From Parelaphostrongylus tenuis (lineage: Eukaryota > Nematoda > Chromadorea > Rhabditida > Metastrongylidae), in assembly GCA_019055375.1 (NCBI GenBank), contig JAHQIW010000705.1, forward strand, positions 1 through 64,000: a stretch of DNA of 64,000 bases. Direction: 5' to 3'. Positions within the stretch are counted from its first letter, which is position 1; each line of letters starts with the position of its first letter. The notes beneath the pieces are model-generated. The model worked only from the letters and a program-made list of their open reading frames with translations. It searched no databases and was not told the origin of the DNA. Both the position numbers and the translations under genes were made by a program. Below, one piece after another: positions 4,225 through 58,113 of the stretch.

Positions 4225-5000
4225 GTCGAGCGAACCGGGAATACCAAGTGTGGAACATGGTCTTATTTTCGCTGTTACAACACACTACAATAATTATTTC
4301 AGAAGTCTTATAGAGTACCGTAATCGCCGGTATTTGAGCTTTCGATTGATTTCTGGAACTTTAAGGAAAAGCTTTTCCCACCAAATAAGGCTCGATACAG
4401 AAAGGGCCTTTATGCTTATGCATTATGCAGCATCACTTTTGACAAACCACTCATTATATTTTGAATTCAAGCCACAATTATAAGTTTCAAGTGTTGTATA
4501 TGATGAAATATATCAAAGGTGATAGATCTATATCATTATATTCTTTGTGCAAGTAATACAACTGACGGTATGCTGACATGATTGTAATTTCGCAGTAAAT
4601 GGGAGATTTCCATCTAAGCATAAACGTTATATTCGCACCAAGAACATACGAGTGTGTAGAGAAAATCGCAAGCTATCGGAAAATCACAAAAAACCTAAGA
4701 TTTATTTCCAAAACGTTGAAAAATCCTCAGTTCAACAAGAAATTGCGCACCGCCTACTATTTCACTGCGCGTGGCAATACAACTGGTGCTCCTCAAAGGG
4801 TCAAGAAACTTTTTCTCAACATAATAATTCTTTCTTGATTACCAGAACCGTCCTTCAGTCATCCCACACATGAAGATGAACATTCCACATTTTTTGGACA
4901 GTGGACACAAAGTTGTCAACATGCAAATTACGTTCTTATATCAGAAATGATTTTATTTGACCACCACTTGCGGTTTATGATGTTACAATATACCTATATG

Positions 5001-5113
5001 TAGAGTGCTGTGCAAAAGCGTTTGCGTCAGCCGCGATTTGAACCCAGATCGCACTCTTTCTGATAGCGTATGCCAACCGTTGCACCACCGACGCAAACAT
5101 TTTGCATGTTCTT
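5001..5113 (-). repeat. tRNA-like foldback repeat (family T), mirrored at 57,151
   Basis: Read on the minus strand it has GTGGTGCAACGGTT (A-box-like), GGGTTCAAATC (B-box-like) and CTGACGCA, between GTGCAAAA-type inverted ends. The counterpart in the right outer repeat is in the mirrored place and orientation. Confidence 0.7.
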
Positions 5114-5230
5114 TTATTGTCTGAGCATAACAATCCGCGTTGAAATATTCATACATAATCAGTCAGATTGCTTTTCAGTTGACCACCTTTAAAGAAAGTA
5201 AGATCTTATAATATACTTAATGATAAGGAA

Positions 5231-5368
5231 TGATGTGCAAAAACATTTGCGCCAGCTGAGATTCAAACCCATATTTCACGCTATCGCAATGGTTCAGCAC
5301 GCGCATCCGGATAGGGTGAAATGTGGGTTCGAATTTCAACTGACGCAAATGTTTTTGCGCATCACTCT
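5231..5368. repeat. Double tRNA-like foldback repeat (family T), mirrored at 56,901
   Basis: About 138 bases with long inverted ends. The left end runs from GATGTGCAAAAACATTTGCG through a minus-strand B-box-like stretch; the right end has GGGTTCGAATTTC followed by TGACGCAAATG and GCGCATC. The two halves pair over roughly 40 bases, so this copy is a head-to-tail inverted pair of the tRNA-like ends, with the A-box-like part in the loop. Confidence 0.7.
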
Positions 5369-6419
5369 TTAACATTGGGTACATTCATATATAGTCACTG
5401 AGAATGCTTTTAGCAGTCATTTTCTAGATCTGGTTAGATTATCCAAAGCAACAGTCAACAGCAGCACATGTGTTTCGGCAACTTCGACTTCAGAAGTGCC
5501 ATTTTCTCCGTCACTTTTCTTACCCCTGTCATGAAGAAAGAGTTCCAAAGACTGCTAAACTGTAATCACTTAAACTATCCTCCACTAGATGTTTTAAGTT
5601 GTTGTTTGTTTTGTTTGACTGTTGTTACTGACCAGTTCGAATATTCACTTTGCATGCGCGGAGTGTAACCTGCTGGCCAACGATACCTTTATGTAAGAGA
5701 TTCTTCTTCAAGAGGATTGGCTCAGACAAAAGGCACCGCTTGCACTATGTAAGTTTCGATAAAAGGCTTCATCAAAGACCCAAAAAAACATTGTTAGGTT
5801 ATATTGTTTTGAGCGAAGTCTCAAAAATCGAAGTTTAAAGGTATCATTGAAATAGCTGGTTTCAAACCAACAAGTGGCCACAGAGCCGTGAAATGTCTTA
5901 AAAAGATTTGAAAGAATTAGAGAGCGTTCTCAAAAAGGTCGCACAACCACCTTGTCTGCTCCAAAGAATATTCAGAAGATCTGTTGACATATTCATCAAA
6001 ATTCGAGCATTCGAAGCGCAGAATGGCTCGGTAAGCGCAGCAGCGCTCGAAGCAATGTCAAAAATGAGCTGAGCTACATTTACAAGATAGCTTGTGTTTA
6101 CTTTGTGAGCAAAGAGATCTAGAAAACGGCTTCCAAAACCTCACCGAATGATTCGTTCGGCAGCTGGTGCTCGCTTGTCGAGGGTGCTTTTCACTCATAA
6201 AAAGAAATGCATGGTAAAACCATTTGCGAGAAGCCAGAATTGACAGACTCGATATCAACTTTTCAAGAAGGATTAGCAGAAGTCAGCAATTGAAAGTTGC
6301 GCCACTGGACAGATGATGTTGATCTTCTTCAACAGAAACGTCAGAATGAATGCTGTGAGGTATTAGCAGCAAGTTTTACGAGGCGTAGTGGAGCCTTAGA
6401 ATACTCATGACTCAACACT

Positions 6420-6955
6420 CAACACTCTAGAGCTGAACAGGAGGAAACGAGCAGGTTGAGGAACGCTTAAAAGTACCGAAAACTCAATAAATAGGGCAAA
6501 GAACATTTGACTCCGTGCTCATCTTTTCGACTCAACCGTTATACTTACCCTAACGTATGCAACTGAAACTGATCGCCATGTAGGCATGATGAAATATTAC
6601 TCTGCGTTACTGAACACGCACTCGAAGCTCGAGCAACTCGTTCATCGCAAATGAAAGCATGCATCCGGATTTCTAAGCTATGTTAGCGATCAATGGTCAA
6701 AGATGCCATTCTAAATGCCAGGTTATTAGAAAGGTGGGCCGAACGCGTAATACGCTTCAACGACAACCGACGGACGAGTGGCGCTGGCGAGCGAATTCTT
6801 CGCAATGTCAAGCGCTTTACAGGAAGATCACGACCCAATGGTCCGATTTCTCCGCAAAAAGTCTTAGAAAAAAATATGATGCTCAAAGGATCCCTAGAGC
6901 GAGGATGATCCACTGGGCAACTCTGGAATGCGGTGGGGAAGATTTGAAGTATTGA
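6420..6955 (+). pseudogene. RTE-type reverse transcriptase, C-terminal fragment (left outer repeat)
   Basis: Broken open frames read ELNRRKRAG, then LRAHLFDSTV followed by an ALTYASE-like stretch, then RWAERVIRFNDNRR, then RIPRARMIHWATLECG. This order matches the region after the catalytic domain in RTE-clade non-LTR retrotransposon proteins, which usually reads FDTTVLPALTYASETW, then RWAGHVMRFNDNRW, then RVPRxRRxHWATLARD. Stops and frameshifts interrupt it (the part from about 6,680 spans two frames), so it is dead. The N-terminal domains are not adjacent. A mirrored copy is at 55,258-55,800 on the minus strand. Confidence 0.85.
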
Positions 6956-7899
6956 TGAGGCTCGGCCGACTCACTAGACGATCAACGCAAAGACAGTGAA
7001 ATAGGTGATTGCTTCGCATTTGCTTCGCAATACTGCTTGCAATTCTTTCCACCCTCGTGCTGTCTTCATTAACAAAATGAGAAGTTGACAGTATCAAATT
7101 ATGCTCGTATATAATCGAGAGCTACAGACAAATATCATCATGTCATAGCAAGGTTAATCGTATTCGTTTCTTGTAAGATATCAACAACGGGTTCGCCTTC
7201 TTTCTTTATCAGAATCGACTCCCTTCAGTTCTTTTGAATAAGCACAAAGGATTTTGACATGATATTCTCATGTTCAACTTTTTCACTGTCTCTTCGAATG
7301 AGAAATTTTTTGGATTCGAAGTTGTAGCTGTTGTCAGTCAACGTAAAAATTCTGATGAAGGTCAAAAAATGTGGAGAAAGAAAGAAAGTTCGATTAAGGA
7401 AGTTTATAATGATGACATCTTCTTTACACACACCATACTAATTTGTCTGGAAAAACCTACAGATCGAAACAATCCATTGATGTTGCCCATTTTTACGCTT
7501 TTTCTTAATTTCTCCTTCTAAAACAATAAGGTGCTCAAGCCGCAGAGCGAAATGCTGCAAAACATGAAGTATTCCAACCTTTCCCTATAGAGACATATCA
7601 AAAAGAACATGTGCTCATCACAACATTAGTGACTGGACCCACTGACGATGCACTGTACTTTGGAAGAATGCTGCACATAAATTTCTACGTTTCCTCTTAG
7701 CGGTGATCTGCTTTCTGAGAATATACCTGGTTTAGTCACCACTGCTGCTCAGAAAAAATTTCAAAAGCCCAATACAACCAAAAACGCAAAGAACTAGCCG
7801 CAAATTTGCATCACGAAGTGGCATAAGTACTTGCATAAGCATAAAAACCTTTCCTTACTCATCAAAGTACAATTCCTCAATTTCGAACATGCTTCGACT

Positions 7900-9240
7900 T
7901 CACAATATCTAATCGTTATTCAATTGATAAGGACAAATTGATTTCAAAACTTGGAGTGGAGAACAATCACTACTTGCACCTTGTGTGTAAGATGGTATCG
8001 CTACAAGGGTCACTGACGTAAAAGATCGTACAAAAACCAATTCTCGTCGACGAAATAGCACGTCGGATTTCTGAAGAGGAAAACGAGTTAGCCAGCATAT
8101 TCGTTCTTCTTTATCTCATATAGAAGCAATGCAGCAAGGATCTCATATCTATGTGGTGGTCGGAGATGTTTTCACATTGCCAATCTGAAAGATCTGACGA
8201 TTTCGCCTGGGCGTCGAAAAGCAGTCATCTTGCGCTCTTGATTGGCCAAACCTCCTCGGGATTCGTAAGTGCCTCCTTTTTATCATCTACTGTTGGCCGC
8301 GTCTCTTCTCCATCTAAAGGCGCTCTCAAGCGCTTAGTTCAGACACTAGTTGAAGGTTCCCAATGACCCGTGCAGCTCTATGCTGGTGTACATGCTCGAT
8401 GGAGACAAGCTTAATGGTAACTTTCAAAATCTCGGCATGGATAGCGCTAACGTCAAGATTTTGAACAACCGGTCAAAATCTATGACGATGTTGTTAACAG
8501 AGGTATCGTCCAAAGAGCCTACTATGGACTCAGATAAAATTTAGTTTATGGTACTTTCGTATTCTCGTTTTATACGGTCTTCTTATTTTTTGCAAAATGT
8601 ATTTTCGCTTGAAAAAGGCAATGTTCTGATCCTGCTTGGAATTTGAATTAGGGCATCGGTAAGGCAAAACTGATCAGTCATGTAGCCCACACTCCTTGAT
8701 AGACAACCCTCTTCTTCGATGAGATTAGTAATATTGAAACTGTTAGTTACTGCACATGGTTTTCGTCGCCACGAGTATTTGAACAGCGTGTCATTTGCAG
8801 TTGATCATTTGATCAGTTCTGCTTCGTCGTTCTCTATGTCACGCTCCTCAGGCTTTCATCTGATTCTAATCTGTAATTCCTTTTGAAGTTCGTACAGAAC
8901 GTTTCGACTTCGCCTTTGTCCTGGCTTCGTGTTGCTGCGTAAACAACTAATATGGTCAAAGGCCGCCATGATCTTCGTTATTTTAGCTTCAATGCCTGAA
9001 TCAGTTTGTCAAATGTTCGAATGAATTTATGACGATGGACAAACTTGTGGTAACGAGATATCCAGCGCCGCCGACACTTCTGTTATCACGCGTCCAAGCG
9101 ACAATGTTTCTTTAATGTCTCGGACGGCGCGGGAAAGTCTGGCGTCTTCTTGTCTCAAACTGTCTGATGACGTCAATTTTTTGCTTGTTTACATGAGCAG
9201 TTCTGTGTGAAGAGTCTGAACGCAGTTGAACTGCATCATA
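7900..9240 (-). pseudogene. RTE element, endonuclease and linker fragment, B copy 1
   Basis: Minus-strand remains of the APE-type endonuclease domain of an RTE non-LTR element. Near 8,880-8,990 the reading LVVYAATRSQDKGEVETFC corresponds to the family's ..FVVYAPTSS..EEEVEAFY strand; upstream of it lie LSLGRVITE-like remnants. Many stops and frameshifts. The fragment runs away from the plus-strand reverse transcriptase piece at 9,540, so the two parts of one element face apart. The 7.9-kb limit is uncertain. Confidence 0.7.
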
Positions 9241-9539
9241 GGTGCAAATAGCCACCTTGGTTCGTTATGATTAAGGCAGTCTCTTCCAACTTGGTTCTTC
9301 CCAACACTGCCGAAACAGGAGATTGTTCGGGGTTACGGGGATGAGACGTACTACTTTTATTATATATTCCCTTTATAAACAGGTAAATAGCTTCGATTAG
9401 CTGTGAAAGTGGAAGCCAGACTCTTACAGGTAGCATGCCAGTTTTCTCCAGAGTGATGCAGAGTTTTCAAATGCAAGCGACTCCTAATCGCCTTCGAGTA
9501 CACTTCCTAGTCAATTGACAGATTTATTTTAGCCAAGTT

Positions 9540-10350
9540 GGCTACTTGCACAAAAACTATGTAGAGAGTTTTCCAATGGAAATATACAGTTTCGTAACGA
9601 TCTTGCCATTGAGGTTAAGAGAAAAGTTGAAGAATATACCATCTTCGCTTTGCTGATGACATTATTTTTATAATACCCAACATCAGCTAAGCAGAAAGAA
9701 AGTTGTTCAACTTCGACAACGCTTGCGGTAAGATTTTCCAACTAAGTTTTGTGAAAAGATTTTTTATGAGGACCGGATGGCTTTTGAACATTATATTCAT
9801 TGTTACTGGAATGAATATCTCCGGATACTACAGTTACTTTTACCGAGGTTAAGTCAATTCAATGAATGTCATAGCTTGAAATTTGAGCAGGACGAATCGA
9901 GCAACTTGGGTAGCTTTTGATAGCACTGAAAATATATAGGAGAGAACATGGAGCATCGGACTCCGCGTCTACCCATGCGACTAAATGGTTATGGCTTAAT
10001 GTACCATAGAAGCGCGTTTGCTACGTGATCAGGATGAAAGATCATTTGGTGTTGTTGAACTTTGATCAAAAAGTCAATGCTAGTATGCCATATCTTGCAA
10101 GTAGAGAAAAGATCCAATGTTCTAACTTACGCCAGCGGCCGATAACGGCAGATGCCGTTTCCAAACCAGGCTATCGAAGATTAGATGAGCCGGGCACGCA
10201 ATTTTCATTGACGATAGCGGATAACAACAGGAATCACCATATCAAATGCTCGGAATATCAAAAACACATTAGAAAGATACCTGAGAAAGTCTTTTTTTTT
10301 TCAAAAAAAGCTCAAAAAATTGTGGTGTTCAAAATATCTACAGTTAAATT
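9540..10350 (+). pseudogene. RTE reverse transcriptase fragment with FADD box, B copy 1
   Basis: Near 9,638-9,663 the plus strand reads YHLRFADDIIF, the catalytic [YF]xDD box C of reverse transcriptases in its RTE form (LRFADDIVLI). It is followed after frame changes by SISQAE-like residues, then by a region matching the thumb and C-terminal part (TNRATW near 9,900, IADNNRNHH near 10,215). Frames are broken throughout. The same piece lies in the other three B copies. Confidence 0.85.
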
Positions 10351-11379
10351 GACCACTTAGGTTGCTCATTCACGAGCTAGGGAGAAGTGGAGGCTTACTG
10401 GCGCGCGCTCGAATCACTCAACGACGAAAGGCCTACAGGTTATGCAAATGATATCAATCCACACAAGGCTAAGCAATAATAGTCACGTAATCGACTATAG
10501 CTTTGTGATACAGTGATTCAAATCTGCTTATTATATACAGCAGCGTGTTGGAAATATAGGATGAATGCCTTGGCAAGACTGCTTGTGAATAAGCAATTCA
10601 GCTAAAACGACATGGAACTTCTCAATACGGAATTGATCTAACACGGAACTGCCACAACACGGAAGTGCCACAAAGTGCCACAACACGGAACCGCTTGTTC
10701 ATCTCAAGTCGTTGCTCGTAAAATGACTCATAATAGAGCTTGTGATTATGCATCACGTGTTTTGATTTGTCACTAGAGGATAGAGAATTCTGTCACGTTT
10801 CAGGTCGTTGATGACTTTTTGAACGAGTGAAGTTTCTCGCTTTACACACTACGTTGCACACTAGTGGAATGAGAACTCACATGAAGAACTTAATCTCCAA
10901 AACATTTTGCAGTGTGTTGGAGATGCAGTGCTCAAGTAGAAATCTTCAAAATCTGATGCCCAATTCACCGTATGTTACACTGCAAATTAATATACTGCAG
11001 AAAGAGTGTTACTGTCACGGAATGGTAAAATGTGAGATGAATGTAGCTTTTTTTACTTGTTATAAGGCAATAAATACTTGAAAGCGTTTTTGGGTGAAAA
11101 AACTAGATCAATTCTATAGCCTAATATGTTGAATGAGTTGACAGATTGCTTATATAACAAAACAACTCTTCGAACAATGGAGTGATCTTTTCAAAATATC
11201 TCTAGGGATGAGATGAAGCAGTTAAGAATTTGTAATCCTTGCACAGAGAAGATGTGGCTTTATTATAGAAAATCTGCAGAAACAAATCTAGCTTTGATGG
11301 CACATAGTTGTGAAATTGCGGGAAGTTGGGGGCGTTTGATAAACATTCACTTTGCTGAGAAACTCGGAGCGTTCAAGAA

Positions 11380-11405
11380 GGTGAGCAAAGAAGCCTCTGC
11401 TCACC
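11380..11405. other. Conserved hairpin, GGTGAGCA/TGCTCACC stem
   Basis: Perfect 8-bp stem with a 10-base loop, near the B end of the arm. The same hairpin appears in the other arms (for example near 21,900, 26,100, 36,340, 40,350 and 50,715) with small loop changes. Function unknown. Confidence 0.6.
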
Positions 11406-11885
11406 ACCACCTCACCTGATTTCTCAACAACATTCCATGCAGTCTTTTATTTTTATCTATTTATAAGATCATCAGTTCAGAATTCTCCTGCCTCATGGCA
11501 ATAACTGGTGCCTGTATGGAGTTACAACTTCTATAAGCAATTCCAAGAACATTTTCTTTTTTCCTTCGTCCCATTGGTGAACTCTTGATGACATTCCATT
11601 CACTGCTTGCCCCTGAACTCTACAGTTAAATCAGGTAGCTTTTATTCTGGGGATTACTCAACTTCTCCGTTAGCATATGCAATCCCATGAGCTTACCAGA
11701 AGTACGTGGCAATGAGTGCATCGAACGTTGACCAACGTGATTTTTGTTTCTTAGAAATCTGTCTTAGTCAATTCAAATCTGTTTTTACAGACTTAATCGG
11801 GATAGTGCATTTGTAATTTTGAAGTTTTGTCAATTGCAAATGATTTATTTTTGAGAAAAGTGTGATCTGATGTTTCAAAATCAGA

Positions 11886-11919
11886 AGAAGGCGTAAACCG
11901 AATCTAAGCTACGCCTTCT
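11886..11919. other. Hairpin about 330 bp upstream of gene copy 1
   Basis: Perfect 10-bp stem (AGAAGGCGTA/TACGCCTTCT) with a 14-base loop. Related sequence is present in all arms, but the stem is damaged in several (arm 2 near 21,390; arm 5 near 40,890). It could be a remnant of a small foldback element or a regulatory structure. Confidence 0.55.
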
Positions 11920-12229
11920 GAGTAGTGACGCTTCCACTAAAATTTCTGTCCAAATGATCACTTTCACCTGTCTTATTCTTACTTAAAACTGATTGCAGAT
12001 CGATTCTCTCATGCTTTGGATTAGCAGCACCTATTGCAGAATGTATTTCAAAGATTTTGCCCTGTATTAAGCGAGCTGGCAACTCTAAAGCTTTTGAAAA
12101 TGCGAAAGAGCTAATGAGGCGATGTCTCCCAAGTTTAAGTGACGAGTGACAAATTCGTTGTTATCTTGTATGATCATATGCGAAAGATGTTGAAATTTGT
12201 TTACAGTTGTCTTATATTAACTTCAATCT

Positions 12230-12244
12230 CTTCAAGAGCCACAA
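12230..12244 (+). promoter_or_regulatory. 5' leader and possible trans-splice acceptor of gene copy 1
   Basis: A pyrimidine-rich CTCTTCAAG lies a few bases before the ATG at 12,245. Nematode spliced-leader acceptors sit in this position and usually read TTTCAG, so this is only a weak candidate. A TATA-like CTTATATTAA is at about 12,211. Both are inference. Confidence 0.3.
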
Positions 12245-14599
12245 ATGAAGATTCTTACAAACATAAAGAGACTTCCGATTGAATTGACCTTGATTTCGCT
12301 GCTAGCAACATTTTCGACAGTGCTCGGATGTGGAGTAATGCCTGCAGGTCAAGGTAATGAAGAAAAGATTGTTATGGCACCACAACAAACACTCCCAATT
12401 TTTGATGCAGATCATGAACACTACAGATAGATTTTATAAATTAGATCATTAGTGCTCTGGACCTCTCCTGATCCGAGCATTTTGATGGGAGGATCTTCAA
12501 ACATGACTATGAAAATTCAAATGCATGAAATTACCGAGCATTGTAATTTAATTTTGTGTTGATAACTACTGTAACTAAGAAATTTCGCTGCAGTGAGCAC
12601 TAGAACGTTCAACGTCTCGGGTTTCACAACTTTACCCGTCAACATGGTCTACGCCGGAAAGCTCGAGATTTCTATTCGAGTACCTGGGATTGCAGCCAAC
12701 AGCAGGAGTGCTCAGGCATTTGTAGAACGTCTTGTAATGCAAACAGTGAGCTGCAACTCTAACATTTTGAGAGCTTTTTTTTAGAAACTCTGAAAAGTCT
12801 TAGAAAGGGCGAAAAATCGTAACTAAGTATTAATTTTCTGACAAGTCGTCAACCTCCAATTACCAACATGACTCTTATAGCTTAACTTCGTTGAACTGAA
12901 AAAACACTTTCAAATGACGTCTTCGAACTAGTGAAAATTTCGCTGTTCAGGTTTTTGACGTTCTGGAAAGTCAAGCTCGTACTGCACTCCTGCCTGATGC
13001 AGTCATCTCACTCATTTTGAGTCATCTTACTGTAAAAGTCAGTTACACACCAATGCAGTGCCAGACAATTCTTAGTAGTCCAACAGATATGACAGAAAGT
13101 AAGTAATCAGTCTCTCCATTCGACCGCTTTTTCACACACCTCGCTCAAAACAATAATAATCTGATAAGGATATAACATGTTTTGAGTCGTTAAGGTCCAA
13201 CTGCTAGACAGGCGCATGTTTCGCCCTACCTGGACTTCTTAGTAGCACAGACCCCTGGTTAAGTCATCTCCTTGTTGCTATACTCCTCTATGGAGGAATC
13301 GACGCCGAGCAACAAGTCACCGCAAGTCAGGTGAGGAGGCGAAGTAACTCGGCGGCAATTCCTCCATAGAGGAGTATAACCCCAAGGGGTTTGCTGAACC
13401 GGGAGTCTGTGCTACGGAGAAGTTCAGGTAGGGCGAAATATGCGCCTGTCTAGCACTTAGACCCTAACGATTTAAAACATGTTATATCCTTATGAGTAAT
13501 CAATTTCCAGATATTTAGAAGAATATATGCTGAAATGTATAAGGTATTCGGAAAAGGACGCAGGTTTATGATGTACAACTATATATCCCAGAATTTTGAG
13601 TGATAGGCACAGCTTTCAACCTTGGGCTGGAGCTCCACTCAAGCGTACCCGAAAAGGATAACACTGTTAGTAAAACAGTGGAGCAACGAATTCATGTACA
13701 ATGTAGAAATCCATTAACTGTCAGCTTAATAGGATTCACTGCCACTATGTGCCTACCAGACCGGACTCTTTCAAACTTGGTTGCTGACAGCTCAGTTATC
13801 AAATATCGCAAAGTATCAGCAGATCAGGGGTTCTGGTGATGCAGTGATGATCACGCCTCTAAAAAGTGTGATACGTGGCTTCAACTCCCAATCTGGTTCA
13901 AATTCTGGCATATCTTACCCTACATATCAGCATTTCCCATCAACAATCTTGGAGATGCGTTTATTGCTGTCAAAAACTCAGGCAATTTTTGTAAATATTC
14001 AGTAAATGGCCTGAATATGAGGTAGACCAATCTAATGATGCTATGATTAGAACCTTCAGGTTAGATGATATTTATTGAGCGAGTTTCCTCACATCATTTC
14101 TGAAAACCAGGTATTACTTATTGTATCAAGTGATAAAAAGAAATTTGAATGACAAAGCAATCATTTTTCAGTGCTGCTTTCGGCTTCTCAGAGTTTCGAT
14201 TCTGATAGAGTAAAGTATCCTGCCGCGACTCAAAATTCTTTCAGTTGGTGATATGCCGCAGAACTGCATAATCGTTGGCAATACAGTGACTGGGATATGC
14301 CCTAAAGTAGAAAAGGGTGCGCAAAATGACGATAAGAAGTGTATGAAGAAGAAGAATGTACCAATGGGTATTCCAGGCGAACACTTGACGATAACAGGAA
14401 CTCTTTCGGTTTGAACAGCGCCTTTCCGTACATTTCTGTTTTGTAGAAGAAAAAATCTTTTTAGACCACAAACGTCGTCATGGCGAATTGGTCGCAAGCG
14501 AACTGGCAAAATGTACTAAACAGAGCGATACGAATTCTGGCATCTGGTTCATATGGATTGCACTTTTTCTCGGCAACTGCCACTGTTGGCGGAAACTAA
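12245..14599 (+). CDS. Nematode-restricted small secreted protein, intact copy 1 (five exons)
   Basis: Exons by splice signals and frame: 12,245-12,353, 12,594-12,745, 12,951-13,098, 14,245-14,408 and 14,465-14,599. Joined they encode 235 residues and a TAA stop, with every phase matching. Residues 1-28 look like a signal peptide (Lys/Arg then a hydrophobic LTLISLLATFSTVLG run), leaving GCGVMPAGQ at the mature N-terminus. Further cysteines are at 124, 144, 155 and 169. The body contains FNVSGFTTLP and VPGIAANS, a short FDVLESQ helix, NCIIVGNTVTGIC, and a C-terminal block with VMANWSQANWQ and FFSATATVGGN. This pattern matches an uncharacterised secreted family I recall from Caenorhabditis and strongylids; its function is unknown to me. 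The donor of intron 4 (GTTTGA) is weak, but using it restores the family's TLS-TTN junction, and the intron is about 56 bases. Intron 3 carries a palindromic MITE. This is the only undamaged copy of six. Confidence 0.85.
13165..13492. mobile_element. Palindromic MITE (family P) in intron 3, copy 1
   Basis: About 328 bases, nearly a full-length inverted repeat. It starts TAAGGATATAACATG and ends CATGTTATATCCTTA; the two halves also share GCGCATGTTTCGCCCTA-type and CTCCTCTAT(G/A)GAGGAAT-type blocks. TGA flanks both ends, so the target duplication is TGA, or TA if the terminal TA belongs to the target. It codes for nothing. Present at the same place in all six arms, so it inserted before the arms multiplied. 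Confidence 0.85.
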
Positions 14600-14667
14600 A
14601 ATCGACTTGAGATGTGTTTGAAGCAGGCACTTTTATTTGACCGATGTCTATTACAGCATTACAGCGT

Positions 14668-14673
14668 AATAAA
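14668..14673 (+). terminator. Polyadenylation signal of gene copy 1
   Basis: AATAAA lies 69 bases after the stop codon, the usual distance for a nematode cleavage signal. It is conserved in the other copies (for example 29,384-29,389). Confidence 0.65.
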
Positions 14674-47005: not shown

Positions 47006-47725
47006 TGCCTAAAAGTACACAAAGATGAGAGCTTTCAAAACGCCTTAAGCGATTATACATTTTCCTGTTTGGTCTTATAAAGGTTTCCATAGAGGCATGC
47101 GGAGTCCAGGAAGATCGCCAATCAGTAAGTCGTGAAAATATTTCCTATTTTTACTCACCGACTCATTTAGTGCGTTTAGAGAACATCTTCGCAAGAAAAG
47201 AGAATTGTTCGCGACAATTCTGTAGAAATTAAGATCTAATTTTTCCTGAACTGTTACGATTCCTGTAAACAACCTTTCTGACGTCATGTAGTTGACTTCA
47301 GCAACCAGATATAAGCACTTCTCGATGAGCTGACTGGTAGATTTTATAGTTGGGTGCCTTGTACTGTCGCCATAAAATTAACTAATAAGTGTTTTTATTT
47401 TGAAACTTCGATGTTCTTATTTTTTTTTCAATCTTCCTGTTAAATTCTTACGGTCTCTGATAGTGAGTGGATATCTATTCCGAATCACGAGCGAGTGAAA
47501 ATACCTTATGTGGAGTTTGATTTTCAAATTCTTTGTCGCTTTTCAAGAAAAAAAAACAAAAAAAAACAAATCTATTTCATCACATTGCACACTTGAGTGC
47601 AGTCAGTTTGCAATCCTCTGAGTACTGAACACCTCTGTGATTTTCCTACTTTATTGCCGCTGTAACGCTGTAATAAACATGGGTATAATAAAAGTGCCTG
47701 CTTCAGACACATCTCAAGTCGATTT

Positions 47726-50101
47726 TTAGTTTCCGCACAACAATGGCAGTTGCCGAGAAAAAGTGCAAATCCATATGGACCGGATGTCAGAATTCGAATG
47801 TGCTCCTGGTTTAGAACATTTTGCCAGTTCGCTTGCGACCAATTCGCCATGACGACGTTCGTGGTCTAAACAGATTTTTTTCTACAAAGCAAAAGTGTAC
47901 GGAAAGGCGCTGTTCATTACCGGAAAGAGTTCCTGTTATCGTCAAGTGTTCGCCTGGAATAACCCACTGCTACATCTCATCTTCATCATACACTTCTTGT
48001 CGTCTTGTGCCTGACCCGGTTCTACTTTAGGGCAATATTCCAGTCACTGTATTGCCAACGATTATGCAGTTCTGGTGGCATATCACCAACTGAAAGAATT
48101 GTGAGTAGTGGCAGGATACTTTACTGTCTCAGAATAGAAAACTCTCGGAAGCCGAAAGCAGCATTGAAAAATGATAGCTTTTGTTCTTTAAATTTCTTTA
48201 TATTACTTTATACAATGATTATTGCATCGTATCCAGAAATGCTGTGAGAAAACTCGTTCCCTGAATATCATTTAATCCGAAGGTTCTAATCATAGCATCA
48301 TTAGATTGTCTACCTCATATTCTAGGCCATTTACTGTAAATTTTCAGAAATCGCCTGAGTTTTTTGACAGCAATAAACGCCATCTCCAAGATTGTTGATA
48401 GGAAATGCTGATATGTAGAGTACGACTATGCCGGAAGAACCTGATTGGGAGTTGGAGACGCGTCTCACACTATTTAGAGGCGCATTAGTCAGTGCATCAC
48501 CCAGGACTCCTGATCTGCTAATACTCTGAGATGCTTGATAATCCGAGCTGGTTAGCGACCAGTTTTGAAAGAGTTCCTTCGGTGAAGCAAATGTCGGCAT
48601 TGAATCCTGTCAAGCTGGCAGCTAATGGATTTATATTAAATGTACACGAATGTGTTGTTCTACTGCTTTATCAAGAGTGTTACCATTTCCGTGTACGCTT
48701 GGGTTGAGCTCCAGCCCGAGGTTTGAGAGTTGTGCCTACCACTCAGAATTCTTGGATGTATAATTAATTATACATCATAACAATGTGTTCTTTTCCGAAT
48801 ACCTTTGGCATTTCTGCTTATATTAATTTGAATATCCTCAAAATTGATTACTCGTAAGGATATAACATGTTTTGAGTCGTTAAGTTCTTAGTACTAGGCA
48901 GGTGCATGTTTCGCCCTATCTGGACTTCTCAGTAGCACAGACTCCCGGTTCAGTCAACTCCTTGGCGTTATACTCCTCTATGAAGAAATCGACGCCGAGT
49001 AATTTCGTTACCTCACCTGACTTGCGGTGATTTATTACTCCGCGTCGATTCCTTCATAGATGAGTATAGCCTCAAGAATTTGGTTGAGACCGGGCGGTTT
49101 GTGTCACTGAGAAGTCCAGATAGGGCGAAGCCTACGCTATTCTAGCACTTAGACCTTAACGGACTCCAAAATATGTTATATCCTTATCAGATTATTATTG
49201 TTTTGAGTGAGGTCTGTAGAAAAGCGGTCGAATGGAGAGACTAATTGCTCACTTTCTGTCATATCTGTTGGACTACTAAGAACTGTCAGGCACTGCATTG
49301 GTGTGTAGGTGACTTTTACAGTAAGTTGACCCAAAGTGAGCGAGATGACTGTCTCAGGTAGGAGTGCACTACGAGCTTGGCTTTCCAGAACGTCGAAAAA
49401 CCTGAACAGCAAAATTTCCATTAGTCCGAAGACGTTAATTGAAAGTGCTTTCAATCAAATGAAGTTATGCTGTGAGAGTCATGTTAATAAGTGGAGGCTG
49501 ACAAATTGTCAAATAATTAAAACTTACTGACGATTTTTCGCCTTTTCTAACGACTTTTCAGGATTTCTAAAAAAAAGAAAACTTTTGAAACTCTAGAGTT
49601 GCAGCTCGCTGTTTGCATTACAACCGTTCTACAGAAGCCTGAGCACTCCCGCTGTTAGCTGCAATCCCAGGTACTCGAATAGAAATCTCGGGCTTACCGG
49701 CGCAGACCTATTGACAGGTAATGTTGTGAAACCCGAGACGTCCTAGTGCTCACTGCAATCCATAGTTTCTCTAGTTATCAACATAAAACTAAATCACACT
49801 GCTCGGTGGTTTCACACATTTTAAATTTTCATAGTCATAATTCAAGATTCTCCCATGAAAATGCTCGGGATCAAGCCAGGTCTAGAGCACTGATAATCTG
49901 ATAGATGAAATCATTCAATGTAAAGTTTCATAATCTGCATTCAAAAATTGGTAGTGTCTGTAGTATCTCAACACAATATTTTCTTCATTACCTTGACCTG
50001 CAGGCATTACTCCACATCCGAACACTGTCGAAAATGTTGCGAGCAGTGAAATCAAAAAACAGGTCAAGCGGAAGTCTCTTTATGCTTGTAAGAATTTTCA
50101 T
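47726..50101 (-). pseudogene. Secreted-protein gene copy 6, heavily damaged
   Basis: Exons in transcription order: 49,992-50,101, 49,620-49,752, 49,253-49,401, about 47,921-48,089, and 47,726-47,865. Exon 1 has one extra T in a run of six, shifting the signal peptide. Exon 2 is 19 bases shorter than normal, including a loss of TTCAACG, and its donor is GC instead of GT. Exon 3 has one extra base. Exons 4 and 5 have several inserted bases. The upstream region is deleted. This is the most decayed copy. Confidence 0.8.
48855..49186. mobile_element. Palindromic MITE (family P) in intron 3, copy 6
   Basis: About 332 bases from TAAGGATATAACATG to ATGTTATATCCTTA, the same intron position as in the other five copies. 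Confidence 0.8.
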
Positions 50102-51729
50102 TTGTGGCTCTTGAAGAGATTGAAGGTGGAAGTGATCATTTGGACAGAATTTTTAGTGGGAGCGTCACTTCTCAAACGGCGTAGCTTAGATTCGGTTCAC
50201 GCCTTCTGATTTTGAAAACCCCAAAAAAATAATTCAGTTGTAATCGACAACACTCCGAAATTACAAATCTACTATCTCCAAGAAATCTGTAAAAACATAT
50301 TTGGAATAACTAAAAACGGAGCACAAATATCTCTCAAGAAACAATATTGGACAACAAATTTTCAAGAAACAAGTGTCACGTTAGTCAACTTTTGATTGCT
50401 CTCATTAGCCTCTTTCTTCTGTTAAGCCTGTAGGATCTTATGTTCTAACGGAGAAGTTGAGTGGTTCCCAAAATAAAAGCTACGTAATTTCACTGTTGAG
50501 TTCAAAGGCTAGAAGGAAATGGAATGTCATCAAGAATTCATCAACAAGACGAAGGAAAAAGAAGATGTTTTTGGAATTCATTATAGAAGAAGTAACTCCA
50601 TTACATGCGTCAGTTATTGCCATGAGGCAGGAAATTCCAAACTGATGATATCATAAATAGATGAAAATGGAAAACTGCATGGAATGTTGCTGAGAAATCC
50701 AGTGAGGTGATGGTGAGCAGAGGCTTCCTTGCTCACCTTCCTAAACGTTCCGTGTTTCTCAGCAAAGTGGATGTTTATGGAACGCCCTCTACTTGTCCGC
50801 AATTTCACCACTATGTACCATCAAAAACTAGTTATGCTGGTGCCAGATTACAAATCCTTTAACTGCTTCATCTCATTTCTAGAATATTCTGAAAAGATCA
50901 CTACTTGTTCGAAGCGTTGTTTTGTTAGAGTAAGCAATCAGTTCAACTCATTCAGCATATTAGGCTATAGAATTGATCTAGATTTTTCACCCAAAAACGC
51001 TTTCAGGCATTTATTGCCGAATCTAACAAAAAAAAAACTACGTTCAAGGCAATTCTTACATTTTACCATTCGATAGCAATAACACTCTTTCTCCAGTATA
51101 TTAAATTGCACTGTAACATACGGTGAATTAGATAACAGATTTTGGGAATTTCTACTTGAGCACTGCGTCTCCAACACTATGCAAATTTTTACTTTGAAAT
51201 TAAGTTCTTCATTTCTCATCCACTAGTGTGCGACGTAGTGCGTAAAGCAAAAAACTACACTCGTTCAAAAAGTCATTAACGACTGAAAAGTGACAGAATT
51301 CTCTATCCTCTAGTGACAAATCAAAAACACGTGCTGCATAATCATAAGCTCTATTATGAGTCATTTTACGGGCAATGATTCGAGATGATCAAGCAGTTCC
51401 TTGTCGTGGCAGTTCCGTGTTGGATCAATTCCGTATGAATAGTTTTGTGTCGGTTTTAGCTGAATTACGAATCACCAGCAGTCTTGCCATTAAGGCATTT
51501 ATCCTATATTTTCAACACGCTGCTGTGTATAATAAGTAGATTTCAATCACTAATTCACAAAGTAAGTCGATTGCGTAACTATAAGTGCTTCGCCTTGTCT
51601 GCAATGATATCATTTGCATAGCCTGAAGCCCGTTTGCCGTTGAGTGATTCAAGCGCGCGCCACTAAGCCTTCCAATTCTCCCTAGCTCGTGAATACTGAG
51701 TGGTCAATTTAGCTGTAGAAATTTTCGGC

Positions 51730-52625
51730 TTCAACAGTTTTTCTTATTCCTTTCTTGAAGAAATAGGACTCTGTCTGGTAGCTTTCTAATGTGCTTTTGA
51801 CATTCCGAGCATTCGAAATGGTGATTCCTGTTGTTATCGGCTATCGCCAATGAACACTTGCCGTGTCCGGCTTCATCTAATCTTCGATAAGCCTGGTTTG
51901 GAAACGCGCGTTCTGCGGTTCTCATTACGGCGCGTGCGTGGCTTAAGTTAGAAGAACAATCAGCAGGTCTGCGTGTTTCATCTCTGCTCTATTTGTGCGT
52001 GTTGTGTATGGCAACAACCTCGCATTGACTTTTTGACGTTAAGCTTTCAATAACACCAAATGATCTTTCGTCCTGATTCACGCAGCCGAGCGCGCTTCTT
52101 CTAGTAAGCGCGTTTAGCCTAGAGATAAACCATATTAATCGCCAGGGCGTGACACAGTAGTCCGATACTCTATGTTCTCCCTCTCTTCAATATATTTTCA
52201 TTGCTACGGCTAAAACGCTCTTAAGTTGCTCGATTCGTCCTGCCCAGCCTTCAAAGCTACGACATTCATTTCATCGACTTGAAAACTCCGATAATAGTAG
52301 CTGTGGTGTGTCGGAGATATTCAGTTCCATTAAACACTGGAGGGGGGGAGAGGTAAACGATTATCGTTCAGACAGCGGATCCCGCGTTTCTCATGAAAAA
52401 CCCTCTTCACAAAATTTGGGTTGGGGAAATCCTTACCACGAGCGTTTGTCGAAATTTTATAAAACATTCTTTCTGCTTGATTGATGCTTTGGTATAACGA
52501 ACAGTGATCGTGATCGGCAAAGCGAAGATAGTACGATTTTTCAACTTTCCCTTTTAACGTCGTAGGTAAAATCGTTGCAAATTGGTGTTTTCCCATCGGA
52601 AAACCTCTACATAATTTTGTACAAG
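51730..52625 (-). pseudogene. RTE reverse transcriptase fragment, B copy 4
   Basis: The minus strand at 52,330-52,596 reads YYLRFADHDH and then INQAERM. The catalytic pair Asp-Asp of the FADD box has become Asp-His, so this copy is visibly dead. The C-terminal IADNNRNHHFECSECQKHI reading is at about 51,790-51,850. Confidence 0.85.
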
Positions 52626-52959
52626 TAGGCCAAATTGGCTAAAATGATCTGTCAATTGATTAGGAGGTGCACTCGAATGTGATTAGAGTGGCATTTGCAA
52701 ACTTTGTATCACTCCAGAGAAAAGTGGCATGCTATTTGTAAAAGTCTAGCTTCCACTTGCACAGCTAATCAAGCTATTCAACGGTTACAAAGGGGATATG
52801 TAGTAAAAAGGGTACGTCTCATCGCCGTAACCCCGAACAATCTCCTGATTTGGCAGTGTTAGAAAGAACAAGTACGAAGAAGCTGCCAAAATCATAACGG
52901 ACCCAAGGTGGCTATTTGTACCTATGATGCACGTTTATCTGCGTTCAGATTCTTCATGC

Positions 52960-53960
52960 TCATGCCGACAAAAAAAAATTATGACGTCATCAGACTGTTC
53001 GAGACAAGAAGACGTTAGACATTCCCGCGCCGTTCAGAGACATTGAAAAAACATTGTCGCTCGGACGCGTGATATACAGAAGTTGTCGGCGCCGTTGGCT
53101 ATCTCGTTACCACTAGTTTGTCCATCGTCATCAATTCATTCAAACAATTGACGAACTGAGTCAGGCATTGAAGCTAAAATAACGAAGATCACAGCGGCCT
53201 TTGAACTATTGGTCGTTTACGCAGCAACATGAAGTCATGACAAAGGCGAAGTCGAAACGTTCCGTACAAACTTCAAAAGTCCTTTGAATGACCACACACT
53301 TTTTGAGATCATTGTTGAAGATTTTGAATCACAGATAGGATTTAAATGAACGCCTAAAGAGCGTGACATTGAGAACGACTAACACAGAACTGATCAAATG
53401 ATCAACTGTAAATGACAGGCTGTCCAATGCAGTAACCAACAGTTTCAATATTACTACTCGCAACGAACAAGAGGGCAGTCTAATCAACGGAGTGTGAACC
53501 ACATGATTGAACCTTACCGATGCGCTAATTGAAATTCCAAGCAGGATCAGATCATTGCCTTTTTCAAGCGAACATCCATCTGGGGAAATTAGAAGACCGT
53601 CATACAAACGAAAATACAAAAGTACCAAAACTGGATTTTATCTTGGCCCATAGTAAGGCTCTTTCGAATGATGCTTCTGTTAAGAACATCGTCGAAGAAT
53701 CTGACCGGTTGTTCAAAATTTTAACGCTTAGCGCTTATTCCATGCTGAGACTTTGAGAACTACCACAATATTGTCTCCATCGGAGCTTTGTACGGCCAGC
53801 ATACGAATTATAAAGGGCCTATAAGGCCACTGGGAACCTTTAAATAGTGGCTGAACTTGCAGTACGCCTGCATAAAAGCGCTTGAAGACGCCTTCAAATG
53901 GAGAAGAGGCGCGACCAACTGTAGACGCTAAAAAAGGCACTTAGAAATCGTTACGAAGTT
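52960..53960 (+). pseudogene. RTE endonuclease fragment, B copy 4
   Basis: Plus-strand endonuclease remains, again facing away from the reverse transcriptase piece. Near 53,190-53,250 it reads AAFELLVVYAATHEVMTKAK; near 53,530 IPSRIRSLPF stands where the family has the GSDHRLL motif; later DGEEARxTVDAKKGT-like residues follow with frame breaks. Confidence 0.75.
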
Positions 53961-55257
53961 TGGGCCAATCAAAAAACGCATGATGACTACTTTTTGACGC
54001 CCAGAAACGAAACCCTCAGAGCTCTCAGAATGACAATATGATAACATTTCCGCTACCACATAGATATAATTGGGAACCATGTTGTATTGCTTTTATATGA
54101 AATGAGGAAATGGATATGCAGACCAACTCGTCTTTTTCTTCAAAAATCCGACATGTATTTCGTCGAGTAAGAATCGGCTTTTGGTACGATCTTTGGCGTC
54201 AAGACCCTTGTGGCGAAATCATCTCACACACAAGGTGCAAGTAGTGATTGTTCTCCACTTCAAGTATTGAAATCAATTTGTTCTCATGAATTGAATAACG
54301 ATTAGATATTGTGGAAGTTGAAGGATGTGCGAAATAGAGGAAACTTTGCTTTGATGAATAAGGAAAGGTGTTGTGTTTGTGCAAGTACTTATGACACTTA
54401 GTGATTCAGTTCTGCTACTTGTACTTATGCTTCATTGGTTTGTACTGAACTTTTACGGGATTTTTTCTGATCAGCATTGATGAGACCAGGTATCTTTCTA
54501 GAAAGCAGATTTCCGCTAAGAAAAAAACGTAGAAAAATGTGTTCAGCCTTCAAAAGTACAGAGCATTCCCAATTGGTCAGTCACTAATGTTGTTGATGAC
54601 CAAATGTTTTTTTTTTTGATATGTCTCTTTAGGGAAAGCTTGTAATCCTTCATGTATGGCAGCATTTCTTCATGCAGCTTGAGCACCTTATTGTGTTTGA
54701 AGGAGAAATTGAGAAAAAGCATAAAAATGGGCAACATCAATAAATTGTTCAATCTGTAGGTTTTTTCAGACTAATTAGTAAGGTATGTGCAAATAAAATA
54801 TCATCATTATAAACTGCCTCAATCGAAACTTTCTTTCTATCTTCACATTCAAGTTTATCAACATTTTTACGTTAACCGACAAACAAGCTACAGCTTAGAG
54901 TCCAAAAAGTTTTCTCATTCGAAGAGACAGTGAAAAAGTTGAAAATGAGAACATCATGACGAAATCTTTTTGTGCTCCCTTCAAAATAACTGAAGGGAGT
55001 CTATTGCAAAAAGGAGGTGAACCCTGTTGTTGATACCTTACAAGGAACGAATACAAATAACCTTGCTATGACATGGAGATTTTTGTCTGGTAGCTCTGGA
55101 TTATACACGGGCATAAGGATACTGTCATGTTCTCACTTTGCTGATGAAGACAGCACGAGGGTGTGAAAGAACTGCAAGTAGTTTTTGCTAGGCACAATGC
55201 AAAGCAAATCACCTATTCCCCACACGTTTCTGTTGCATCGTAGAGTGACTCGAGCGA

Positions 55258-55800
55258 TCACCACCAATACTTCCATTCTTCCTCACCGCATTTCAAGAGT
55301 TTTACCCCACTGGATCCTCCTCGCTCTATGATCCTTAGAGCATCATATTTTTCTCTTAGATCTTTTTGTGAAGAAATCGGACCATTTGGTCTGTGTCCTC
55401 CTGTAGAGCTCTTGACATTGCGAAGAATTCGCTCCGCAATGGCTCTCGCCCATCGGTTGTCGTTATGAAGCTTATTAAGTGTTCGGCCCACCTTTATATA
55501 AACTGCAATGTGGAATGGCATCTTTGACCACTGATCGCTGACATAAGTTGGAAATTTGGATCCTTCCTCTCACTTGCGATGAACGAGTTGCTCGAGCTTT
55601 CGATTGCGTATTTTGCAACGTCGAGTGATATTCCATCATGTTTACGATAGCGATAGATTCTGTTGCATACGTTAGGGTAGGTATAAACGGTTGAGTCGAA
55701 AAGATGAGCACGAAGTCAAATGTTCTTTGCCCTATTTATTAGTTCTTCGCGTACCTTTAATCGTTCCCAAACTGCTCGTTTCCTCCTGCTGAGTTCTAGC
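55258..55800 (-). pseudogene. RTE-type reverse transcriptase, C-terminal fragment (right outer repeat)
   Basis: Minus-strand reading of IPTLTYATES, then ARATRSSQVRGRIQISNLCQRS, then HNDNRWARAIAERILRNVK, then LREKYDALRI, in the order of the RTE C-terminus (ALTYASETW, SLLRQRSKI, FNDNRWTRAV, ERFDALRVP). It has at least two frame changes. It mirrors 6,420-6,955. Confidence 0.85.
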
Positions 55801-56900
55801 GTGCTAAGTGTTGAGTGCTGGAGTATTCTAAGGCTCCACTACGCCTCGCGAAAACTTTCTGCTGTATAGCAGACAGCGTTGATTTTGACGTTTTCTGTTG
55901 AAGAAGAATCAACGGCATCTGTCCAGTGGCGCAAATTTCAACTGCAAACTTCTGCTCCACCTTCTTGAAAAGTTGATATCGTATCTGTCAATTCTGGCTT
56001 CTCGGGTAATGGTTTTATACCGTGCATATCTTTTCATCCATGAAAAGTACCTTCGACAAACGTGCACCAGCTACCGAAGCGAATCATTCGGTGAGCTTTT
56101 GGAAGCTGTTTTGCTCATGTTTTTTGCTTACAAAGTAAGACAACCATACCTTGTAACTGTGTAGCTCAGTTCTTTTCGCGGCAATGCTTCGAGCGCTGTA
56201 CTCGCCAAACTAAAGCTTCCCGAGCCATTCTGCGTCTCGAATGCTAAATGTCGATGAATATGTTCAACCGATCTTTTGAATGTTTTCTGGAGCAAAAACC
56301 CAGGTGGTTGGGCAACCTTTTAAGAAATCTCTCTAATTCTTCCAAGTCTTCTCAAAGCATTTCACGGCTCTGCGGAGACTCGCTGGTTTGAAACCAGTTT
56401 TTTCTATAATACCTTCAGATTCGACTGTTTTTTGAGACCTCGCTCTAACATATAACCCCAACAATGTTTTTCTTCGCGACTTTCATTGAGGTACTTTTTT
56501 ATCGAAACTCATACAGTGTAAGCGGTGTCTTTTGCCTGAGCCAAACCCTCTTGAAGGAGAAGCTTTTTACAAAAAAGGTATCTTTGAGCGAGCAGGTTAC
56601 ACTCCGCGCATGCAAAGTGAATGTGCGAATCCTGGTCAGTAACAACAGTAAAACAAAACAGCAACAACCAAGACGACTAGTGAGGATAATCCGTATGATT
56701 ACATTTAGCATTCTATCGCAACTCTTGTTTTCCTGTGATAGAGTGTGGGGGAAAGTGACGGAGAAAATGGCACAGCTGATGTCGAAGTCGCCGAAACACA
56801 TATGCTCGCGGTTGACTGTTGCTTTGGATAACCTAACCAGATCTAGAAAAAGACTGCTAAAGCATTCTCACTGGCTATGTATGAATGTACCCAATCATAA

Positions 56901-57036
56901 AGAGTGATGCGCTAAAATTTGCTTCAGCTGGGATTCGAACCCTATTTTTACCCTATCCGGAGGCGCGTGTTGAACCATTGCACTATCGTGAAATGTGGGT
57001 TCGAATCTCAGCTGGCGCAAACTTTTTGCACATCAT
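56901..57036. repeat. Double tRNA-like foldback repeat (family T), right outer repeat
   Basis: Ends AGTGATGCGCTAAAATTTGC and GCGCAAACTTTTTGCACATCA pair. A plus-strand B-box-like GGGTTCGAATCTC and a minus-strand GGGTTCGAATCCC face each other. Mirror of 5,231-5,368. Confidence 0.7.
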
Positions 57037-57150
57037 TTTTTATCATTGAGTATATTATAAGATATTACCACCGCTAAAGGTGATAAAATGAAAAGCATTC
57101 TGACTGATTATGTATGAATGTTTCAATGAGTATTGTTGTGATTAGATGAT

Positions 57151-57268
57151 ATAAGAACGTGCAAAAACGTTTGCGTCGGTGGTGCAACGGTTAGCATACG
57201 CTCTCGCAAAGAGTGAGATCTGGATTCGAATCCCGCTGATGCAAACGTTTTCACACAGCTCTCTACAT
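57151..57268 (+). repeat. tRNA-like foldback repeat (family T), right outer repeat
   Basis: GTGGTGCAACGGTTAGCATACG (A-box-like), then GGATTCGAATCCC (B-box-like), then TGATGCAAACG, with GTGCAAAAACG/CGTTTTCACAC inverted ends. Mirror of 5,001-5,113. Confidence 0.7.
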
Positions 57269-58113
57269 ATTGGGTATATTGTATCATCATAACGCGAAGT
57301 GGCGATCAATAAATCATTTCTGATATAAGAACGTAGTTAGCACTGTTGACAACTTGTGTCCACTGTCCATAAAGTGTGGAATGTTTAGAGACTCATTGAG
57401 AGGGATGACTGACGGTTGGCTCTGGTAATGTGACGGTTGTAAGAGAGAATTATTATGTTGGAAAAAAGTTTCTTAACCCTTTCAGGAGCACCAGTTGTAT
57501 TCGTCACGCGCACTGCAAGTAGTGGCCGGTGCACTATTTTTTATTGAATTGAGCTTTTTTTCACCGTTTTGGAAATAATCTGAGGTTTTTTTTTTGTGAT
57601 TTTTCGATAGCTTACGATTTTCTCTACACACTCGTATGCTCTTGGTGCGAATATAACATTATACTTGGATAGAAATCTTTTTTTTGCTGTGCAATTACAT
57701 GATGTTGGCATTCTGTCAGTTGTAATTACTTGCACAATAAAGATAATGATATAAACCTATCCCTCTTGATTTATTTCATCGTATACACTACTTGAAATTT
57801 ATAATTGATGGCTTGAAATTGGAATATAATGAGTGGTTTTGTCAAAAATGATGTTGCATAGTGCATGCAATGGCAGGTCATCGATAAGAAAAGCATAAAA
57901 GACCCTTTCTGTATCAAACCTTATTCGGTGAGAAAGCTTTTCCCTTAGAGTACCAGTAATCATTCGACGGCTCAAATACCGGCAATCACGGTACTTTATA
58001 AGGCTTTTGAAATAATTATTGTAGCGTTTTGTAACAGCGAAAATAAGAGACCATGTTTCACACTCGGTATTGTTCGCAAGTATTCGTACTATACTTCCAA
58101 AACAATGTTTCAT

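What the first reader, a model, noticed from the sequence alone, without database searches (positions are those of the whole stretch)
4225..58113. 54-kb nested palindromic array: six inverted arms, three A and four B spacers
The order is outer+, B+, arm+, A+, arm-, B+, arm+, A+, arm-, B+, arm+, A-, arm-, B-, outer-. Landmark positions in the halves sum to about 62.27 kb, so most of the window is a palindrome that also has a direct period of about 14.5 kb. A simple history is an ancestral inverted duplication (outer-B-arm around A) followed by tandem multiplication of a B-arm-A-arm block. I do not know a described locus of this form.
Basis: partly seen in the sequence, partly recalled or inferred. 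Interest (0 to 1): 0.78.

Follow-up and report, generated by a model that had tools for sequence, protein, structure and literature searches.

The report
Inverted gene array in deer brainworm
The 54-kb mirror-image repeat is a cluster of six neighbouring copies of one secreted-type protein gene in the deer brainworm, facing alternately left and right, made by an inverted duplication followed by tandem duplications; this is an ordinary kind of gene cluster, though it belongs to a strikingly large gene family of unknown function.

Summary
The array is real and lies wholly inside the window (4,240-58,071). Six alternating arms of about 4.4 kb flank three ~2.1-kb spacers (S); four B blocks (3.6-3.9 kb) lie between, and two outer blocks (3.2-3.3 kb) close the array. 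Block-wise identities are 80-93%. Copy 1 (235 aa) is intact and identical to KIN20_005217 of Parelaphostrongylus tenuis. In-frame codons are constrained (dN/dS about 0.43; 1 stop in 1,073 codons against 9 expected), so this is a local array of three tail-to-tail gene pairs. The other five copies are interrupted; many of the frameshifts are probably errors of an unpolished Q8 PacBio assembly. A 5.7-kb tract is mostly 93-100% alike between two places (gene conversion, or assembly merging). I saw 144 annotated family loci, all in P. tenuis, partly in local clusters, and no Pfam match. A smaller precedent of the same kind is the C. elegans hsp16 locus. Verdict: new member of a known kind.

The parts
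4240..7433 (+). outer block O1, no gene recognised, carries a degenerate tRNA-like element
   Evidence: 83.2% to O2; tRNA-Leu call at 5022-5095; no Pfam match in six frames
7433..11168 (+). B1 spacer between outer block and 5' side of gene copy 1
   Evidence: 84.7% to B2 and B3, 81.6% to B4; no Pfam match
11168..15584 (+). arm 1
12245..14599 (+). gene copy 1, intact, exons 12245-12353, 12594-12745, 12951-13098, 14245-14408, 14465-14599; 235 aa, identical to KIN20_005217
15584..17667 (+). S1 unpaired core between arms 1 and 2
17667..22129 (-). arm 2 (inverted)
18634..21069 (-). gene copy 2 (annotated as KIN20_005218), frame interrupted in this assembly
   Evidence: KIN20_005218 100% over residues 1-153 in three pieces at 21124-20225
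22130..25894 (+). B2; its left edge is the arm|B junction made by tandem duplication
25894..29961 (+). arm 3
26971..29311 (+). gene copy 3, frame interrupted in this assembly
29961..32052 (+). S2 core, same orientation as S1
32052..36568 (-). arm 4 (inverted)
33013..35130 (-). gene copy 4, exons 2-5 recognisable; exon 1 (signal sequence) replaced by other sequence, part of which resembles the intronic palindromic element
36569..40138 (+). B3; same arm|B breakpoint as at 22130
40138..44608 (+). arm 5
41252..43601 (+). gene copy 5, frame interrupted in this assembly
44608..46724 (-). S3 core, inverted relative to S1 and S2
46724..50918 (-). arm 6 (inverted)
47739..50097 (-). gene copy 6, many one-base insertions in this assembly
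50918..54783 (-). B4 (inverted)
   Evidence: 80.3-81.6% to B1-B3 overall, with a ~900-column stretch at 67-75%
54783..58071 (-). outer block O2 (inverted), tRNA-like element at 57171-57246
17400..23100 (.). tract mostly 93-100% identical to 31,800-37,500 (300-column windows; two windows around copy 4's lost exon 1 and the last B window are lower)

Best explanation
A local gene array in the meningeal worm Parelaphostrongylus tenuis: six paralogues of a secreted-type protein gene as three tail-to-tail pairs, separated by B and S spacers in which no gene was recognised. SHOWN: the gene in every arm, one intact copy, in-frame coding constraint across the copies, one private junction breakpoint present twice, S3 flipped, one homogenised tract, local clustering in the family. 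INFERRED: a founding inverted duplication made a palindrome with ~11-kb arms (O-B-gene-S-gene'-B'-O'). A tandem duplication with breakpoints at O|B and arm'|B' created B-gene-S-gene' units, and unequal crossing-over or a second duplication gave three. Recombination between inverted arms flipped S3, and gene conversion homogenised parts (a2 with a4, a5 with a6). The product is most likely an exported protein whose dosage and sequence variety the array increases, probably at the worm-host interface; that last step rests only on the signal-type N-terminus and the size of the family.
For: Gene: five exons of copy 1 open, its eight intron-edge dinucleotides GT/AG; protein 100% identical to KIN20_005217. 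Constraint: for the ten pairs without a4, exons differ 6.7-10.2% and introns 11.5-17.7%; dN/dS 0.28-0.61, mean 0.43 over 15 pairs. Control without a4: exons in frame 0.42 with 0.09% stops; shifted frames 1.04 and 0.86; 54 noncoding pseudo-frames 0.49-1.04 with at least 2.98% stops. 1 stop in 1,073 in-register codons against a neutral mean of 9.05, range 1-17 in 500 simulations. History: one arm|B breakpoint at 22,130 and 36,569, S3 flip; arm tree (a2,a4), (a1,a3), (a5,a6), all three inner branches starred. Family: 144 locus tags listed in two searches, all P. tenuis; 20 neighbouring pairs within 8 tags have median tree distance 0.63 against 1.22 for all pairs, 0 of 2,000 shuffles as low; without the array's own two pairs 0.75, again 0 of 2,000.
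Against: Five of six copies are not open in this assembly, so functional copy number could be one. dN/dS alone is weak: noncoding pseudo-frames reach 0.49. The order depends on a Flye assembly of reads with mean length 8 kb and average Phred 8 at 23x from two pooled worms, and I had no reads. B4 as the deepest B branch is confounded by local base errors, since private one-base insertions are several-fold higher in the right part. a5 grouping with a6 needs conversion or another event. In 9 of the 20 neighbouring pairs the partner ranks only 20th to 98th of 133, so not all family neighbours are recent local duplicates. Function has no direct support: no Pfam match, no PDB sequence match, no clear fold match.
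Confidence: 0.87

Rival explanations
1. One functional gene (copy 1) and five true pseudogenes: the array is a decaying duplication with no present function beyond copy 1.
For: Copies 2, 3, 5 and 6 carry frame-breaking indels, and copy 4 has lost exon 1 and carries further indels.
Against: Codons stay constrained and only 1 stop is seen in 1,073 against about 9 expected. Private one-base insertions in copy 6 are at least as dense in exons as in introns (9 in 727 and 11 in 1,817 columns) and are raised in neighbouring B4 too, as sequencing error would give. The assembly paper describes no short-read DNA polishing in the two of three text parts I read. Copy 4's lost exon is a large change and looks real.
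Confidence: 0.3
2. Assembly artefact: missed SMRTbell adapters or haplotype duplication made the inverted and tandem copies.
For: Low-quality reads, two pooled worms; one 5.7-kb stretch is mostly 93-100% identical between two places.
Against: Missed-adapter palindromes and haplotype copies would be near-identical, while arms here differ by 10-20% overall with a coding signature. Local clustering of the family recurs at other loci.
Confidence: 0.05
3. A transposable element with very long terminal inverted repeats, or nested insertions of several elements.
For: Alternating inverted arms; small palindromic elements and tRNA-like elements are present in the array.
Against: The arms carry a spliced gene of a dispersed secreted-type family; no Pfam match to a transposase or polymerase in the frames scanned; the arm|B junction recurs at one breakpoint, as in tandem duplication; no target-site duplication is evident at the outer ends by eye.
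Confidence: 0.04
4. Independent gene-by-gene duplications in alternating orientation, not one palindrome multiplied.
For: Nearly star-like divergence among arms.
Against: B and O blocks are copied along with the genes and the arm|B breakpoint is the same at both places.
Confidence: 0.06

Closest known systems
C. elegans hsp16-1/hsp16-48 locus (Russnak and Candido 1985, as described in passages of PMC3966223)
   Same: Duplication and inversion of a gene, then duplication of the resulting module, with gene conversion favoured to explain high identity; inverted gene copies at one locus.
   Different: Two modules of 1.9 kb, 416 bp apart, with head-to-head genes; here three palindromes of 10.7-11.0 kb with tail-to-tail genes, 3.6-3.9-kb spacers and mostly 10-20% divergence.
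Locally clustered lineage-expanded secreted-protein families of parasitic nematodes (for example SCP/TAPS; recalled, no call)
   Same: Many paralogues with a signal-type N-terminus, clustered in the genome.
   Different: This family has no Pfam match, and the listings of my paper searches show no paper on it.
Ampliconic palindromes of mammalian X and Y chromosomes (recalled; Rozen et al. 2003 seen only as a reference)
   Same: Genes inside inverted-repeat arms, conversion between arms, flipping of the spacer.
   Different: Those arms are nearly identical (recalled); here only one 5.7-kb tract approaches that. Sex linkage and germline expression unknown.

Membership tests
Clustered multigene family (local gene array) | Adjacent homologous genes with the same exon structure | tested here: met
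   Five-exon gene aligned in all six arms, exon 1 replaced in copy 4
Clustered multigene family (local gene array) | Array copies closer to each other than to the rest of the family | tested here: inconclusive
   Only copies 1 and 2 have models in the tree. P0001's nearest rows are P0003 (0.16, another contig, neighbouring tag, partial model) and P0018 = copy 2 (0.31), then a jump to 0.76: a tight local group, but one outside gene is in it
Clustered multigene family (local gene array) | Coding constraint in the copies | tested here: met
   In-frame dN/dS 0.42 and 0.09% stops, against 0.86-1.04 in shifted frames and 0.49-1.04 with at least 2.98% stops in 54 noncoding pseudo-frames; 1 stop of 1,073 codons
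Clustered multigene family (local gene array) | More than one expressed functional copy | not testable with these tools
   No reads or RNA; only copy 1 open in this assembly
X/Y-type ampliconic palindrome | Arms nearly identical through frequent conversion | tested here: not met
   Within-palindrome arm identity: a1/a2 85.3%, a3/a4 80.8%, a5/a6 87.6%
X/Y-type ampliconic palindrome | Sex-chromosome location, germline expression | not testable with these tools
   No chromosome assignment or expression data
Long-TIR transposable element | Transposase or polymerase gene | tested here: inconclusive
   No Pfam match in six frames of 1-17,780 and 59,021-64,000 at E<=0.01; 22,131-25,893 and 54,784-58,071 at E<=10 gave only OST-HTH at E=1.3, 9.4 bits against a cut-off of 23.8; degenerate remnants would be missed
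Long-TIR transposable element | Target-site duplication at the outer ends | tested here: inconclusive
   None seen by eye at 4,201-4,300 and 58,021-58,120; old ends could have lost it

The most novel reading that the evidence does not exclude
The family spread through P. tenuis by repeated palindrome formation: inverted gene pairs are its unit of amplification, and conversion between inverted arms continually reshuffles an exported protein repertoire of well over a hundred genes, a diversity generator at the host interface of a brain-invading worm.
Probability: 0.1. Interest if true: 0.65.

Novelty: new member of a known kind. Interest (0 to 1): 0.4.

Why it matters
It turns a puzzling DNA shape into a readable record of how one gene family grows: junctions, flip and homogenised tract give the order of events. 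It also points to a large secreted-type protein family of unknown function in an important wildlife and livestock parasite, and warns that assembly indels may hide copies: of the six genes here I saw public models for only two among the hits listed.

Tried and rejected
Rejected: gene-free repeat architecture (arms are genes); missed-adapter artefact (copies too diverged); transposon with long TIRs. Six-frame Pfam scans missed the gene, which was found by reading the sequence; the spliced protein has no Pfam match either, so those scans could not have named it.

I suspected LINE remnants in O and B (an ELNRRKR-like string and an FADD motif, recognised from memory). Pfam gave no support, and a protein search with a B2 open frame (24,677-25,105) had 6 candidates, none at E<=0.001. 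Whether other nematodes hold the family is unknown: of 380 and 387 hits only the best 120 of each are listed, all P. tenuis. The tree used 134 of 145 proteins: lengths 190-260 plus P0003 and P0018. Genome papers of related worms, such as PMC6871775, were only seen in a listing and not opened.
Full report
WHAT IS THERE. Self-BLAST, a 500-bp tile map and block alignments confirm the array. In window coordinates: O1 4,240-7,433; B1 7,433-11,168; arm 1 11,168-15,584; S1 15,584-17,667; arm 2 (inverted) 17,667-22,129; B2 22,130-25,894; arm 3 25,894-29,961; S2 29,961-32,052; arm 4 (inverted) 32,052-36,568; B3 36,569-40,138; arm 5 40,138-44,608; S3 (inverted) 44,608-46,724; arm 6 (inverted) 46,724-50,918; B4 (inverted) 50,918-54,783; O2 (inverted) 54,783-58,071. 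Pairwise identity over aligned bases is 79.8-90.2% for the 3 kb of each arm next to B, 80.3-85.9% for B, 83.1-92.5% for the former 'A' blocks and 83.2% for O. Mirror landmarks sum to 62.01-62.46 kb, but B2 and B3 point the same way, so the whole is not one palindrome.

WHAT IT CARRIES. Reading the arms showed splice sites around open segments. In copy 1, exons 12,245-12,353, 12,594-12,745, 12,951-13,098, 14,245-14,408 and 14,465-14,599 join to a 708-base frame with GT/AG at all eight intron edges. The 235-aa product begins with a hydrophobic signal-type stretch (my reading; the model has a helix at 12-29) and is 100% identical over its full length to KIN20_005217 of Parelaphostrongylus tenuis, on a 93,435-bp contig. 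KIN20_005218 is copy 2: its residues 1-153 match 21,124-20,225 at 100% in three pieces. All six arms align over the five exons, except that copy 4's first exon is replaced; a ~340-bp palindromic element sits in intron 3 of each copy, and a related stretch lies at the lost exon. Each arm-S-arm block is therefore a tail-to-tail gene pair with coding ends 3.7-4.1 kb apart (coordinates), and B2 and B3 lie between the 5' ends of neighbouring pairs.

ARE THE COPIES WORKING GENES? Over the ten pairs without copy 4, exons differ by 6.7-10.2% and introns by 11.5-17.7%. The mean over all 15 pairs is 9.3, 11.3 and 14.4% for codon positions 1, 2 and 3, with copy 4's lost exon included. dN/dS is 0.28-0.61, mean 0.43, in 15 pairs (copy 4 from exon 2 on). 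As control, the same measure without copy 4 is 0.42 in frame, 1.04 and 0.86 in the shifted frames, and 0.49-1.04 (median 0.72) in 54 noncoding pseudo-frames; stops are 0.09% of codons in frame, 8.53 and 4.65% in shifted frames, and at least 2.98% in noncoding. So dN/dS alone is suggestive, and the absence of stops is the stronger sign: one stop in 1,073 in-register codons, next to an indel in copy 5, against a mean of 9.05 (1-17) in 500 neutral simulations with the intron spectrum. Yet copies 2-6 all contain indels that break the frame. Constrained codons with unconstrained indels point to assembly error. The genome paper reports Flye assembly of reads with average Phred 8 and mean length 8 kb, 23x, from two pooled females; in the two of three text parts I read, Illumina is described only for RNA (PMC10940269). 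Private one-base insertions are concentrated in the right part: 28 in arm 6 against 0, 2, 4, 4 and 14 in the others, and 25 in B4 against 1, 5 and 6. True recent loss in some copies cannot be excluded, and copy 4's lost exon is probably real.

HOW IT AROSE. The arm|B junctions at 22,130 and 36,569 share one breakpoint, whereas the O|B junctions at both ends match each other and the four B|arm junctions match each other. The economical history is a founding inverted repeat O-B-arm-S-arm'-B'-O', tandem duplication of B-arm-S-arm', and one more copy by unequal exchange. S3 is inverted relative to S1 and S2, as recombination between inverted arms would do. Arms group as (a2,a4), (a1,a3), (a5,a6), all three inner branches starred; the last pair is within one palindrome, so exchange between arms is needed too. 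A tract of about 5.7 kb (17.4-23.1 kb against 31.8-37.5 kb) is mostly 93-100% alike in 300-column windows, broken only around copy 4's lost exon and fading at its right edge, where the other comparisons are mostly 80-90%: recent gene conversion, or reads merged in assembly. The junctions lie in this tract, so their near-identity is partly due to it; their shared position is not. The apparently older split of B4 is confounded by errors in the right part and by a ~900-column stretch at 67-75%.

THE FAMILY. Two searches listed 120 of 380 and 120 of 387 hits; together 145 distinct proteins, 144 locus tags, all named P. tenuis. In 119 of the first 120 rows, 17 neighbouring pairs lie within 8 tags against a random mean of 2.8, maximum 11 in 2,000 draws from 38,371 gene models. 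In a 134-row tree, 20 such pairs have median distance 0.63 against 1.22 for all pairs, none of 2,000 shuffles as low; without the two pairs of this array's own group the median of 18 is 0.75, again 0 of 2,000. The partner is among the nine nearest rows in 11 of the 20 and ranks 20th to 98th in the other 9, so local duplication is common but not universal. Orientation at other loci is unknown to me because the own-genome search did not complete. No Pfam match, no PDB sequence match, no clear fold match. Paper searches with the species name plus genome or gene-family terms, and for expanded secreted families of metastrongyles, listed no title or abstract start that treats this family (listings only, except PMC10940269 read in two of three parts and the results section of PMC10329008).

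WHAT IT IS LIKE. PMC3966223 (passages) describes the C. elegans hsp16-1/hsp16-48 locus as an ancestral duplication and inversion, then duplication of the module, with gene conversion favoured, and names other adjacent inverted paralogues. The present locus is larger and tail-to-tail, but of that kind. It fails the near-identity feature of mammalian ampliconic palindromes (feature recalled). I judge it a new member of a known kind, of moderate interest mainly because of the family it belongs to.

Noticed in passing
5022-5095 (-), 57171-57246 (+), 62016-62090 (+), near 1112: Degenerate tRNA-like elements, called Leu(CAG) and Ala(CGC) at mirror positions of the two outer blocks, with further copies outside the array. 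They look like a dispersed tRNA-derived repeat and may explain part of the 9,623 tRNA genes reported for this genome.
   Followed up: partly
13161-13496, 19808-20157, 27879-28209, 34196-34562, 42162-42497, 48855-49191; related piece at 35335-35493: A ~340-bp self-complementary element (MITE-like) in intron 3 of all six gene copies; a related stretch lies where copy 4 lost its first exon.
   Followed up: partly
about 43,000-58,000: Private one-base insertions several-fold above the left part: a local drop in consensus quality of the public assembly.
   Followed up: yes
P0003 (KIN20_005210, 72,787-bp contig): The closest listed protein outside the array (85%) lies on another contig with a neighbouring locus tag, so a further member or a second array may be near.
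   Followed up: no
5210-5388: A short palindrome of about 180 bp resembling the tRNA-like element by eye.
   Followed up: no
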